DNA of 64,000 nt from Flavobacteriales bacterium (GTDB lineage: Bacteria; Bacteroidota; Bacteroidia; Flavobacteriales_C; GCA-002722245). The notes beneath the pieces were generated by a model. The model had not been told where the DNA came from, searched no databases, and saw only the letters and a list, made by a program, of their open reading frames with translations. Every line of letters starts with the position of its first letter. The stretch's first letter is position 1. The stretch covers positions 1 to 64,000 of the forward strand of contig JAHEZM010000008.1 in NCBI GenBank assembly GCA_023251075.1, given 5' to 3'. Made by a program: the position numbers and the translations under genes. Of this stretch, positions 4,006 through 9,505 are shown piece by piece.

Positions 4006-7000
4006 TCACTTCTGCTCCAATCTTTTTCTAATTTGCTGAAGGTATTTTTGTTTCGCCTCTTCACGCATCTCGCTTGCAGTTTTCGTGAAGTACTTATGCG
4101 CTCCAAGAAATTTCACTTGAATTGGATCCCAATCATCGGCATTTTTAATTCCGCCGTAATCCAGCAATTCTTGTTGAAGAGTAGAACTAATTTTTTCAAA
4201 ATCATCTCTTCCTAAGTAATCTAAATCGGCATCACAAATAATTTCTTCCAAATGATTGGTTGGATTTTGAGGAATACGTGTGGCCATAATCATTCCTTCT
4301 ATGATATCAATTTGTGAATCGGTGAAGCCATAACCAGGTAATATTTCTTTGGCGAATTTTACGCCTTCAGGTTCATTACTCCAGTATTTATTCAAGAAGC
4401 CTGCATCATGCAATAACGCAGCCATTTTCACCAACATTAATTCTTCAGGATCTAAACCTTCTGCCTTTCCTATTCTTTCTGCTGCATGCAATACATCTCT
4501 GGTATGATGCGGGCCATGATAGTATAAATTTTCAGGAAGTTCTTTTTCTAACTTAGCCAACACAAATTGTTTTACCTTATTGTAATTCAATTTGCTGTAA
4601 ACATTGAAATGGTGAAGCTCTTGAAAAGCAATATTTGGAATTTGACCTAAGCGATCTTTCGATAATTCAGCCTTAATTCCCTTCACAAAATACATATCGA
4701 TTTCGCCTTTATTTTTCACCGGAATTTTACCTCGATACTCACAATCGAAATACTCACTCACCATATTGTAAGTAGTTCCTGAAATATTGATATGGCCCGG
4801 CTGAGAGCTCGATTCCATTCTACTGGCTGTATTCACGGTATCGCCCCAAATATCGTAAGCGAATTTTTTCTTTCCTACCACACCGGCAATAATTTCTCCG
4901 GTATGTAACCCTATTCTCAATTCCCATCTTGGAGCATCGGGAGCCGCCTTTGTTTGCGAATCCAGCATGAAAGCCTGCATACGCATTGCAGCCAAAATAC
5001 AATCTACAGGATTGGTTTTATTTCTGATGGGAACACCACCGGCAGCCATATAGGCATCACCACTGGTTTTAATTTTTTCGATATTGTGTTTGTCGGCAAT
5101 ATCATCAAAAGCATTGAATGCTTTATCCAGTTCTGCTACCAATTCTGCCGGACGCAAGCGCTCAGCAATCTGGGTAAACCCTTTAAAGTCGGCAAACATC
5201 ACGGTTACCATTCTATAGTGACGTGGTGCTGCTCTACCCGTACTTAATAATTCCTTAGCTGTTTCAGCTGGTAAAATATTCAGTAATAATTGCTCAGTTT
5301 TATTTTTTTCTATTTCGAGTTTTTCTTTTTGTTCTTCAATCTCCGCCCGTTTTTGAACTACTTCCTCCGTTCTTTGCTGAACCTTATATTCCAACACTCT
5401 TTTTTGGGTTTTGATAATGGCAACACGAGAATAATAAACCCCTAAAACGATGGCTAAAATAATAGCAATGGCAAAAGTTCTAAACCACCAGGTCATCCAA
5501 AATGGAGGATTGATAATGATTTTAAGCGATGCAAATTCTTTTGATTCCACACCATCACTATTCATCGCTTTCACTTTAAAAGTATAAATTCCCGGATCCA
5601 AATTCGTAAAACTCACTTCACGTTTATTTCCTACATCCTGCCACTCATCAATAAAGCCTTCCAGCATATATTTGTAGCGATTGTTCTCGGGAGAGGTAAA
5701 ATGCAAACCGGTATAGCGAATGGTAATAGCATTATCAACATAAGGAATTTCGATCAGCTCCAAGGCACTTATATCTTTGCGAATAATAGAGTTCACGCCG
5801 GGTTCAATCAACTTGTTGGAAAGCAACAACCCAATCAATGAAATTTGTGGAGGAACTTTATTCAGCTTAACGTCGGCAGGATAAAAAGCATTGAAGCCAT
5901 TCACCCCACCAAAAAATAATTCGCCGCTTTTCGATTGATAATAAGCCCCTCTGTTGTATTCATTGCTCTGTAATCCATCCTCTTCATGAAAGGTTCTGAA
6001 TTTGCGGGTGGCTGGATCAAAACGCGACAAGCCCTTATTGGTACTCACCCACAATAATTTTGCATTTACATCTTTTAAAATACCATATACTACGTTGTTG
6101 CTTAACCCTTCTTGTTCGGTGTAATGCTGGGCTCTTCCCGATGTAATTTCATATTGATTGATTCCACCTCCATAAGTTCCTAGCCACAATACTCCTTTTG
6201 GAAATTCTTCGATACATAAAATAGCATCGTTATTTAAGGAATGCATTACATTTTTTTCGTGAAGGATACGTGCAAATTGAAGTTTCTCAATTTGATTCGG
6301 ATTTAAAACTTTGTTTAATCCACTTCCGTTAGTTCCAATCCAAACCGTACGGTCCAAGGATTCAAAAATACAATTGATGGCCCCTCGTCCCAATCCCTTA
6401 AAATTATTTACGTTATAGGAATACCAATAAGATTTGTCTTGTTTGGTACTCATCACAATCAAATTTTCTCTTCCGCCAAACCAGATATTTCCACGCGAAT
6501 CACAAAGAATAGAATATACCGCTTCGGTGAAGCGACTAACTCCAGGAAGGATAAATGGTTTTAAAACAAAACTGGTATCGCCTTGTTTTTGCACCACAAA
6601 AACGCCATGATCGGTTCCTGCAATAACTCTTTTTTGACTATCAAAACACAAAGAGTAAACCTCTTTAATAACGCCTACATTAACTTTAATAAGCTTTCCG
6701 GTTTTTCTGTTTATTCTACACAATCCTTTTTCACTTCCTACCCAGGTGTAACCCTGATCATCCTCACAAACAGACCATACGTTAATGGAATGAGTAGTAT
6801 TATCCCAATACTCATCCAAAGAATAATACTGTAATTTTTGTTTTAATTTATCGAATTTACAAACCCCCTTATCGTTGGCAATCCAAAGGATTCCGCCTCT
6901 ATCCTGAAATATTTTATTTATTCTGTTATTCGATAGTGAATGCTCTTTAATAGGATCACTGAAATATCTTTTGAAAGCGAAGTTAGAATCCTGACCCTTA

Positions 7001-7938
7001 TATAAATTGAGATCTACAGAATTTAAACCGTATTCTGTTCCTACCCACATCACTCCTTCCTGATCTTCATAAATTGCGCGTACATTGTTATTCGATAAAC
7101 TGTGTGATTTGTATTCGCTATGCATGAAAATCTGACTAAAAACTTTAATCTCTTTTGCGTTAGTTTCATCAATGATTAATCTGTTTAAGCCATGTACCGT
7201 TCCTACCCATATTTCCCCTTTAAAGTCTTCATATAAACTAGTTACATAATTATCAGAAAGCTTATTCCCATTGCTATTTCCTTGTAAAACGCGAGTGATT
7301 TTCTCCCCCTTTGCATCATAGTAGCAAAGACCCTTATCGGTACCTATCCATAAAAATCCTGAAGCATCCTGAATAATAGAAGTAATATTATTAGACGGAA
7401 TAGTTCCTTCGTCTTTTTTGCGATTAACAAAGTGTTTCACTTCAATGGATTCGAGTTTTTCGGAAGTGAGTGCAATTCTACTCAATCCGCCATCTCGCAT
7501 ACCTACCCAAATGTATCCGATACTATCGCGACACAAAGATTGAATATACAACTTACTGGCAGCCAAAGAAGCGCCTGCTACGTTGGCTAAAGAAACAAAT
7601 TCATTGCTGCTAATGTTGTAAATATTCAACCCGGTAGAAGTTCCTATCCAAATAAAACCTCGGGGATCATATACTAAACTGGTAATTCTGTTATTGCTTA
7701 AAGAAACACTATCGAAAGGATTGGGTTTAAACCGAATGAAATTATAACCATCGTACCTGTTCAGTCCATCCTGAGTGGCGAACCACATAAACCCTCTTCC
7801 ATCCTGAATAATATCGGTAACGATATTGTGCGATAAACCATCATGCGTGCTTAACCTCCCGAATTTGATATCCTCTTGTTGCGCAAAAAGCGCAGAAAAA
7901 CAGGACATCGTTAATAGTAGGGATAGAATTCTTTTCAT
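4006..7938 (-). CDS. Propeller sensor fused to class III adenylate cyclase and HD domain
   Basis: A 1310-residue envelope sensor likely to make cAMP. A signal peptide (residues 1-19) precedes about 14 Reg_prop blades (roughly 25-690) with recurring WIGT.xGL motifs, which suggests two seven-blade propellers. A Y_Y_Y domain (about 730-810), one membrane helix (about 815-836) and a coiled coil (about 840-885) follow. The cyclase domain (about 888-1088) keeps the metal aspartates in FADFKGFT and TSGDAY, the lysine in EKIKTSGD and the YDIWGDTVNTASRME segment, a pattern fitting adenylate rather than guanylate cyclase. The C-terminal HD domain (about 1140-1290) has HHTRDV, HD at about 1177 and a later aspartate-rich CDADLDYL. 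The ligand is unknown. The HD part could be a phosphodiesterase or phosphohydrolase; this is inference. Confidence 0.92.
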   Translation of the reverse strand: MKRILSLLLTMSCFSALFAQQEDIKFGRLSTHDGLSHNIVTDIIQDGRGFMWFATQDGLNRYDGYNFIRFKPNPFDSVSLSNNRITSLVYDPRGFIWIGTSTGLNIYNISSNEFVSLANVAGASLAASKLYIQSLCRDSIGYIWVGMRDGGLSRIALTSEKLESIEVKHFVNRKKDEGTIPSNNITSIIQDASGFLWIGTDKGLCYYDAKGEKITRVLQGNSNGNKLSDNYVTSLYEDFKGEIWVGTVHGLNRLIIDETNAKEIKVFSQIFMHSEYKSHSLSNNNVRAIYEDQEGVMWVGTEYGLNSVDLNLYKGQDSNFAFKRYFSDPIKEHSLSNNRINKIFQDRGGILWIANDKGVCKFDKLKQKLQYYSLDEYWDNTTHSINVWSVCEDDQGYTWVGSEKGLCRINRKTGKLIKVNVGVIKEVYSLCFDSQKRVIAGTDHGVFVVQKQGDTSFVLKPFILPGVSRFTEAVYSILCDSRGNIWFGGRENLIVMSTKQDKSYWYSYNVNNFKGLGRGAINCIFESLDRTVWIGTNGSGLNKVLNPNQIEKLQFARILHEKNVMHSLNNDAILCIEEFPKGVLWLGTYGGGINQYEITSGRAQHYTEQEGLSNNVVYGILKDVNAKLLWVSTNKGLSRFDPATRKFRTFHEEDGLQSNEYNRGAYYQSKSGELFFGGVNGFNAFYPADVKLNKVPPQISLIGLLLSNKLIEPGVNSIIRKDISALELIEIPYVDNAITIRYTGLHFTSPENNRYKYMLEGFIDEWQDVGNKREVSFTNLDPGIYTFKVKAMNSDGVESKEFASLKIIINPPFWMTWWFRTFAIAIILAIVLGVYYSRVAIIKTQKRVLEYKVQQRTEEVVQKRAEIEEQKEKLEIEKNKTEQLLLNILPAETAKELLSTGRAAPRHYRMVTVMFADFKGFTQIAERLRPAELVAELDKAFNAFDDIADKHNIEKIKTSGDAYMAAGGVPIRNKTNPVDCILAAMRMQAFMLDSQTKAAPDAPRWELRIGLHTGEIIAGVVGKKKFAYDIWGDTVNTASRMESSSQPGHINISGTTYNMVSEYFDCEYRGKIPVKNKGEIDMYFVKGIKAELSKDRLGQIPNIAFQELHHFNVYSKLNYNKVKQFVLAKLEKELPENLYYHGPHHTRDVLHAAERIGKAEGLDPEELMLVKMAALLHDAGFLNKYWSNEPEGVKFAKEILPGYGFTDSQIDIIEGMIMATRIPQNPTNHLEEIICDADLDYLGRDDFEKISSTLQQELLDYGGIKNADDWDPIQVKFLGAHKYFTKTASEMREEAKQKYLQQIRKRLEQK

Positions 7939-7977: not shown

Positions 7978-8003
7978 AACTTGCCTTAATAGCAGGGCAA
8001 GTT
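7978..8003. repeat. Inverted repeat upstream of the cyclase gene
   Basis: AACTTGCC and GGCAAGTT form perfect 8-base arms around a 10-base loop. On the plus strand Ts follow, so it can look like a terminator, but no plus-strand gene ends here. On the minus strand it lies 19 nt upstream of a TAGATTTC box (7958-7951) that resembles a -7 element and is 12 nt before the cyclase start. It may be an operator for the cyclase gene or the 3' end of the DSYS-repeat transcript. Confidence 0.35.
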
Positions 8004-8022: not shown

Positions 8023-8534
8023 TTATTTCCCTGTTTTAGGATCAAACAAGCCCATTTGCGGTTTTTTCCTTTTTTTAGCAGGCTCTTCACGAATTCTGTG
8101 TTTTTTGCCTTTCCAAAAAACAAGATAATCATACCAGCGTTTGGTGTGGTATTTTTCTTTCGGCCTATCGTATCCTCTCGGACGTTTTCTTGCGGAGGAA
8201 TAAGAGTCATGAAACTTTTCTTTTTTGTGCTGCCGCGATGGGGAAGAATATGAATCATGAAAATTCATTTTTCTGTGTTTCGTTGGACGAACAGAATAGC
8301 TATCGCCTTTGCCCCGTTTACCGGCACCTTTATTTTCATTATTGCGAAAACTTCGTTTAATACGGCGTGATTTTTTGTCGCTAATTCTTCCGCTATATGC
8401 TTCATTGGGATTGGATCGCCGAACTTTTCTGTCCTTCTTGTAGTGAACAGCATAGGGATCACTAAACCGCCGTTCGTTGCGTTTGTTCGAACTTCTTACG
8501 CTGTAAGAGTCGTCACCTGAATAGTGCTTGTCTC
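8023..8534 (-). pseudogene. Out-of-frame continuation of the DSYS-repeat lipoprotein
   Basis: Downstream of the 11-A run (8535-8545), the alternate frame stays open for about 170 codons to a stop at 8023. It continues the same repeat unit: GDDSYSV, GDSYSV, NFHDSYSS and KFHDSYSS, separated by lysine- and arginine-rich linkers. The tail is basic and tryptophan-containing, ending MGLFDPKTGK. This frame has no plausible start of its own near the junction. Ten A instead of eleven would join it to the preceding frame and give a lipoprotein of about 264 residues. It may be a sequencing error, a phase-variable state or a slippage product. Confidence 0.65.
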
Positions 8535-8818
8535 TTTTTTTTTTTCGATGAAAAACTATCGTAGAATTTCAACCTCCTTTTACTGTTCCCTTTAGTGGAA
8601 TAGGAATCTCGATAATCCGACTTACCGCGTTTTCTTGATTGGGTAGAATAGGAGTCTTTGTATTTTTGTCGTTTGTTGCTGTATCCCGACGAGCTATAGC
8701 TATCACGATAATCCGTTGAGCCACGAGGGGTTTTCACCGAATCGTCGTAATACTTCTCGCTACAGCCCGAAAAAGCCACAGCGATAAGCACTGTAAAATA
8801 TAAAAGAAAATGATTCAA
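8513..8818 (-). CDS. Small DSYS-repeat lipoprotein (N-terminal frame)
   Basis: The 101-residue reading frame starts with a lipoprotein signal peptide whose lipobox is FSGC (Cys at residue 19), so membrane anchoring after secretion is expected. The mature part is made of short repeats with the core DYRDSYS / YKDSYS / YDSFS, each followed by a basic linker. After the fourth repeat a run of 11 A (8545-8535) shifts the frame and translation ends after KKKKRQALFR. The repeat continues in another frame down to 8023. The gene starts 22 bases after the ferritin stop and is probably cotranscribed with it. I do not recognise the family. Confidence 0.65.
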   Translation of the reverse strand: MNHFLLYFTVLIAVAFSGCSEKYYDDSVKTPRGSTDYRDSYSSSGYSNKRQKYKDSYSTQSRKRGKSDYRDSYSTKGNSKRRLKFYDSFSSKKKKRQALFR

Positions 8819-8840: not shown

Positions 8841-9362
8841 TTACTGTCCCTTTGCTCCCGTTGAAACCGATTGACCGGTAAGATTTTCAAGGTCTCTATC
8901 GAAAAGATACAAACCTCCTTTATCATTACCAATCAAATTTATTTTATCCATAATTTTTCTGGCAGTAGCTTCCTCTTCAATTTGTTCAGCCACGTACCAT
9001 TGCATAAAATTATGTGTTGTAAAATCTTTTTCTTTCAAGCAAGTATCTACTACTTTATTAATTTCCTCGGATACAAAAACCTCATGCTTAAACAAGCCCT
9101 GAAACAAAGCAGTTAACGAAGTAAAACTGGATGCTGGTTGCTTAATTGCAGGAATTTTTGCTTGTCCGCCTCTTTCATTTACATACCTCACCAACTTCAG
9201 CATATGTATTCTTTCTTCGTCGGAATGACGGTATAAAAATTCGGATGTTCCGCTTAAGCCTTGATTTTCGGCCCACGAAGCCATTGCTAAATATAGATTT
9301 GAAGAATCAGCTTCTAATTGAATTTGCTTGTTCAGCGTTTCCTGCACTTTTTTATTTAACAT
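8841..9362 (-). CDS. Non-heme ferritin
   Basis: An iron-storage four-helix bundle protein of the bacterial ferritin (Ftn) type, expected to oxidise and store iron in a 24-mer. Ferroxidase ligands are visible: E in LEADSSNLYLAMASWAE, E and H in RHSDEERIHMLKL, and the QIEEE cluster later. I chose the start MLNKKVQETLNKQI at 9362. It matches the usual family N-terminus, and a TATGTTTG promoter box (9393-9386) lies just upstream of it. The frame stays open to another ATG at 9416 that would add 18 residues. The DSYS-repeat lipoprotein follows on the same strand. Confidence 0.93.
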   Translation of the reverse strand: MLNKKVQETLNKQIQLEADSSNLYLAMASWAENQGLSGTSEFLYRHSDEERIHMLKLVRYVNERGGQAKIPAIKQPASSFTSLTALFQGLFKHEVFVSEEINKVVDTCLKEKDFTTHNFMQWYVAEQIEEEATARKIMDKINLIGNDKGGLYLFDRDLENLTGQSVSTGAKGQ

Positions 9363-9385
9363 ATACCCGTCCTGTTGATGTAACT

Positions 9386-9393
9386 CAAACATA
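9386..9393 (-). promoter_or_regulatory. Bacteroidota -7 box for ferritin
   Basis: On the minus strand the sequence is TATGTTTG, a full match to TAnnTTTG, ending 24 nt upstream of the ATG at 9362. No clear -33 TTTG was found. It supports the shorter ferritin start. Confidence 0.45.
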
Positions 9394-9505
9394 GCATTTT
9401 TAAGTCGCTTTTCCATGAATTAAAAAGGGAAAATTGTTAAAAATAAATTGTTGATATAGAAAAGGTGACCTTTTTAAAGTTTTTCCATTAAGGGGAAAAA
9501 GAAAT

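What the first reader, a model, noticed from the sequence alone, without database searches (positions are those of the whole stretch)
8023..8818. DSYS-repeat lipoprotein interrupted at an 11-A tract
A lipoprotein made of DSYS-containing repeats (about eight: DYRDSYS, YKDSYS, FYDSFS, GDDSYS, GDSYS, HDSYSS twice) with basic linkers changes frame at A11 (8545-8535). The repeat pattern runs on in the other frame to 8023, and ten A would give one protein of about 264 residues. Such runs in surface lipoproteins can switch expression by slippage. Ser/Tyr-rich repeats with Lys/Arg linkers recall adhesive or mineral-binding proteins, and the gene sits behind ferritin.
Basis: partly seen in the sequence, partly recalled or inferred. 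Interest (0 to 1): 0.55.

Follow-up and report, generated by a model that had tools for sequence, protein, structure and literature searches.

The report
Lipoprotein gene spanning a slippery A-run
A freshwater bacterium carries a small repeat-rich lipoprotein gene whose normal end is followed, in another reading frame, by the rest of a longer version, and a run of eleven A's between them probably lets the cell make both lengths from one gene.

Summary
In detail: A11 (8545-8535, minus strand) joins a 101-codon DSYS-repeat lipoprotein ORF (TTG start) to an open 172-codon stretch in another frame; the 16-residue repeat register runs on exactly if one A is skipped. The interpretation needs correcting. 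All four held congeners have the gene, and each ends where the window's frame-0 stop lies, so the short form is the genus-wide protein and the 172-codon extension is what is unusual. The extension looks coding (open by chance about 1e-5; codon usage p=0.005). Of 40 distinct A-runs of 9 or more examined in this genome, 18 lie in intact ORFs and only two sit at frame transitions: this gene and dnaX. The dnaX A10 two-ORF arrangement is kept in 9 of 10 genomes of the order, a natural control for slippage. A published A11 gene with the same geometry (C. rodentium tssM1) makes 20-25% long product by RNA polymerase slippage. Best reading: a two-length lipoprotein gene expressed by transcriptional slippage, in one species. 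DNA-level switching, an assembly error or a recently broken gene are not excluded; no RNA, reads or second isolate were available. The ferritin link is not conserved.

The parts
8513..8818 (-). Short DSYS-repeat lipoprotein ORF (frame 0), TTG start, 101 aa, four repeats of 16 residues, C-terminus ...FYDSFSSKKKKRQALFR*
   Evidence: orthologues of 117-119 aa with the same end in G001-G004; TTG start in 5 of 5
8535..8545 (-). A11 run (on the mRNA strand), proposed slippery site
   Evidence: one of two A>=11 runs in the genome; one of two frame transitions among 40 distinct A>=9 runs examined
8513..8515 (-). frame-0 stop TGA, same place as in congeners
   Evidence: alignment A2; simulation
8023..8541 (-). 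Extension in the other frame, 172 codons and stop: further DSYS repeats and a basic aromatic tail
   Evidence: (repeat stretch 8182-8406 matches the short-form profile at 1.2e-5)
7980..7996 (-). hairpin just after the extension's stop, before the sensor gene; weak, no U-run on this strand
   Evidence: z -1.65
8841..9416 (-). upstream ferritin gene (neighbour; association not conserved)
4006..7938 (-). downstream propeller sensor / nucleotide cyclase / HD-domain gene (syntenic neighbour in G002, G003, G004)

Best explanation
One lipoprotein gene with two products. Ordinary decoding gives the short, genus-wide repeat lipoprotein. RNA polymerase slips on the A11 tract, so some transcripts carry 10 or 13 A's; on these the ribosome passes the stop and makes a 264-residue form with more repeats and a basic aromatic tail. 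Shown here: the anatomy, the repeat register, coding-like codon use, the conserved short end, and the dnaX control. Inferred: that slippage occurs at this tract, that both forms are exported, and that both are useful, perhaps as short and long basic polymers on the cell envelope.
For: Repeat register of 16 kept across the tract with one A skipped. Second half coding-like: LLR/codon 0.074 against 0.077 for the short ORF and negative in the other two frames; synonymous codon fit p=0.005. Short end matches four congeners. Of 40 distinct A>=9 runs examined, 18 lie in intact ORFs and 2 at frame transitions, this gene and dnaX. dnaX has a two-ORF arrangement at A10 in 9 of 10 genomes; the tenth (G006) has A13 and one ORF. 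Precedents: section 23 of PMC3711429 (two-ORF dnaX, nine with 10 A's); passages of PMC4256274 (A11, cDNA with 10-15 A's, 20-25% long form).
Against: Neither the tract nor the extension exists in any of the four congeners: the longest A run near their ends is 5-7, so the switch is not conserved. dnaX needs one A more, this gene one fewer or two more, so the control is not identical. No stimulatory RNA fold after the tract (z -0.51). Homology of the tail to the long forms of the sister genus is unproven: the profile test failed (743 of 5000 shuffles as good).
Confidence: 0.5

Rival explanations
1. DNA-level phase variation: the tract changes length in replication, cells with A10 (or A13) make only the long form, cells with A11 the short one.
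For: Long A runs are likely hypermutable as well as slippery (PMC1088944 passage); in dnaX G006 has A13 where nine others have A10, so such tracts do change length over time.
Against: RNA slippage at A11 would blur an on/off switch; dnaX keeps A10 in 9 of 10 genomes; no second isolate seen.
Confidence: 0.18
2. Assembly or sequencing error: the real tract is A10 and the species has one long gene.
For: Repeat register fits A10 exactly; the sister genus has long forms of 223-246 aa; the assembly is a draft in 45 contigs.
Against: 18 genes with A>=9 runs are intact in the same assembly, 7 of them at A>=10, one (recO-like) with A11, so tract errors are not common here; the four congeners end at the frame-0 stop.
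Confidence: 0.17
3. Recently broken long gene, or a useless remnant behind the short gene: the extension is decaying.
For: The other four species have no extension and live with the short form.
Against: 172 codons without a stop or second frameshift, native codon usage, repeats with diverged codons.
Confidence: 0.12
4. Ribosomal +1 frameshifting at the A tract instead of transcriptional slippage.
For: Would give the same long product.
Against: The long frame needs a +1 shift; no stimulator fold found; A11 alone is a shown RNA polymerase slippage site elsewhere.
Confidence: 0.03

Closest known systems
Two-ORF dnaX with a 10-A tract (PMC3711429, section 23; also present in this genome and its relatives)
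   Same: short product ends just after an A run, long product continues in another frame; same genome
   Different: the dnaX arrangement is kept in 9 of 10 genomes and its long frame needs one more A; here only one species, one A fewer or two more
Citrobacter rodentium tssM1 (PMC4256274)
   Same: A11, frame-0 stop shortly after, deletion of one A gives the long protein; not generally conserved among orthologues
   Different: there the long form is the canonical one and slippage is proven; here the short form is canonical for the genus
Thermus thermophilus dnaX (PMC5009743 passages)
   Same: A run, RNA polymerase slippage, two products
   Different: a single ORF encodes the long product; slippage makes the short one
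Long DSYS-repeat lipoproteins of the sister genus (G005-G009)
   Same: lipoprotein signal, D-S-Y repeats of mostly 16-17 residues, pI above 10, 223-246 aa
   Different: one uninterrupted ORF, other locus, no A run above 8, tail only weakly alike

Membership tests
Genes expressed by programmed transcriptional slippage | run of 9 or more A or T in the coding strand at a frame transition | tested here: met
   A11
Genes expressed by programmed transcriptional slippage | coding sequence on both sides in different frames | tested here: met
Genes expressed by programmed transcriptional slippage | transcripts of varied A count and both proteins | not testable with these tools
   no RNA or protein data
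Genes expressed by programmed transcriptional slippage | tract and second ORF kept in orthologues (supporting, not defining) | tested here: not met
   0 of 4 congeners
Phase-variable contingency genes | tract length differs between isolates or cells | not testable with these tools
   one genome per species is held
DSYS-repeat lipoprotein family of this order | lipobox cysteine then D-S-Y repeats of mostly 16-17 residues | tested here: met
   10 of 10 genomes of the order
Bacterial lipoproteins | signal peptide with lipobox Cys | tested here: met
   by eye in A2 and A3; no predictor run
Surface-exported lipoproteins of Bacteroidota | export signal after the Cys (recalled, no call) | not tested
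   -

The most novel reading that the evidence does not exclude
A lineage-specific envelope lipoprotein whose chain length is set by RNA polymerase slippage, so each cell displays a mix of short and long repeat polymers, and the ratio can be retuned by single A gains or losses; a non-essential structural gene using the device that the same genome uses in dnaX.
Probability: 0.35. Interest if true: 0.6.

Novelty: new member of a known kind. Interest (0 to 1): 0.42.

Why it matters
Proven bacterial two-length genes made by slippage are, to my knowledge, few (recalled, not surveyed). This would add a cell-envelope repeat protein from uncultured freshwater Bacteroidota, with the conserved dnaX A10 arrangement of the same genomes as a built-in yardstick, and would show such a switch arising or surviving in one species of a genus whose other held members encode only the short form.

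Tried and rejected
Second-half relatives elsewhere: none beyond weak repeat similarity in 60 and 395 genomes, none for the tail alone in 40 genomes apart from matches at E 0.02-1, and none in genome contigs. Of the loci I read six of nine foreign ones given (L014, L015, L016, L019, L020, L022); none looked like a lipoprotein tail. Pfam and NCBIfam gave nothing above cut-off for either half (PF15807 at E 0.24 is below its cut-off).

Tail homology to the sister genus: profile test negative (743 of 5000 shuffles as good). Local alignments against five tails: 29 (G005), 109 (G008), 197 (G007), 346 (G009) and 1308 (G006) of 2000 shuffles as good. An anchored global test on three of the five tails (G006 and G009 dropped because they lack the RGY motif) gave 31 of 5000; chosen after seeing the data. 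I therefore treat tail homology as unproven.

Frame-0 end: a stop 9-11 codons after FSS occurs in 17% of codon shuffles; with a C-terminal match as good as ALFR/SLFK in 0.02%. The score was chosen after seeing the ends. It shows that the DNA ends are probably related, not which frame the window species uses today; independent frameshifts in the relatives would look alike.

Terminator behind the extension: a hairpin exists but without a U-run on that strand; not used as evidence. Relation to ferritin: rejected as a conserved link. Phase-variable lipoprotein literature: listing only, nothing opened.

Full report
What is there. On the minus strand the ORF 8818-8513 encodes a 101-residue lipoprotein with four D-S-Y/F repeats spaced by 16 residues; an A11 run (8545-8535) lies near its end, 19 nt before the stop. 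The other frame is open from 8568 to 8023 and holds more repeats and a basic, aromatic tail. If one A is skipped, the D of the last repeat before the tract and the first after it are again 16 residues apart (in DNA 49 nt instead of 48), and the product has 264 residues.

The short form is the ordinary gene. All 10 held genomes of the order (two genera) carry this family. In the window's genus, G001-G004 have one gene each of 117-119 residues; G001, G002 and G003 have ferritin just upstream, and G002, G003 and G004 the same sensor gene downstream. The named MAG loci L024, L025 and L026 carry the same proteins as G002, G003 and G004, so they are not independent. Their ends, SSKKRKNIFLSK* (G002, G003), SSKKRKNIFLAK* (G004) and SSKRRKKKGSLFK* (G001), fall at the place of the window's SSKKKKRQALFR*. 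The TTG start is used in 5 of 5. dnaX identity puts G001 nearest (92%, others in the genus 87%), so the extension was either lost at least twice or gained once in the window's line.

The extension looks alive. It is open over 172 codons (1.2e-5 by base composition; 0 of 2680 control windows), its codon log-odds equal those of the short ORF, and its synonymous codon choice fits the genome better than a composition null (p=0.005; short ORF p=0.17, ferritin p=0.0005). Repeat codons differ from copy to copy, which argues against a fresh duplication. A stretch of it matches the short-form profile at 1.2e-5 (the profile includes the window's own short form).

Slippage as mechanism. A runs thin out steeply in this genome: 915 of 8 or more, 108 of 9 or more, 14 of 10 or more, 2 of 11 or more, as expected if long runs are selected against (passage of PMC1088944). 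I examined all 14 loci of A>=10 and the 30 fetched loci of the A>=9 search (of 108 places), 40 distinct runs after removing duplicates: 18 in intact ORFs, 20 elsewhere or too near an ORF end to judge, 2 at frame transitions. The two are this gene and dnaX. In dnaX the short product ends shortly after the tract and the long one goes on in another frame in 9 of 10 genomes, always at A10; G006 has A13 and a single ORF. This is the two-ORF dnaX type described in PMC3711429 (section 23 read in full), attributed there to transcriptional slippage. C. rodentium tssM1 has A11 with the long frame reached by one A fewer, gives cDNA with 10-15 A's and 20-25% long protein (passages). By analogy the window gene should give both forms. 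This is inference; nothing here measures RNA or protein. The dnaX long frame needs one A more, so it suggests that slippery tracts are used in this lineage, not the exact ratio here.

What stands against it. The switch is not conserved in congeners; the tail's kinship with the long forms of the sister genus is unproven (negative, weakly positive and post hoc); no stimulator fold; an A10 misread as A11, a phase-variable tract or a recent break cannot be excluded from one assembly.

Function. All members are basic (pI 10.0-11.0 after the signal) and low in complexity, probably unfolded (no structure was predicted), anchored by lipid. Binding of anionic envelope or extracellular polymers is a plausible guess, not tested. 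The family was found only in this order: 8 of 295 class genomes reached 1e-6 with the long-form profile, all of them in this family of two genera; G000 and G001, also in it, did not though they match the short-form profile.

Literature. Search listings only; one paper held transcriptional slippage, dnaX and Bacteroidetes together; none held Flavobacteriales and transcriptional slippage. I make no wider claim of novelty.

Noticed in passing
L126 359-2106 (G000:C19), L135-L144: dnaX is split into two frames at an A10 tract in 9 of 10 genomes of this order; G006 has A13 and a single ORF.
   Followed up: yes
L133 1354-2094 (G000:C42): The only other A>=11 run of the genome lies in frame inside an intact recO-like gene (name by eye).
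   Followed up: partly
window 8816-8818 and L006, L007, L002, L026: A TTG start codon after a T-rich stretch is kept in all five genes of the genus.
   Followed up: partly
L023 (CAMBXP010000057.1): Record titled Chryseobacterium gleum MAG encodes the closest sensor relative (90%) among the listed loci; the species label is probably wrong.
   Followed up: no
window 4006-7938: Single protein with propeller repeats, a nucleotide cyclase domain and an HD domain (by eye and weak NCBIfam matches); relatives are widespread in Flavobacteriales MAGs.
   Followed up: no
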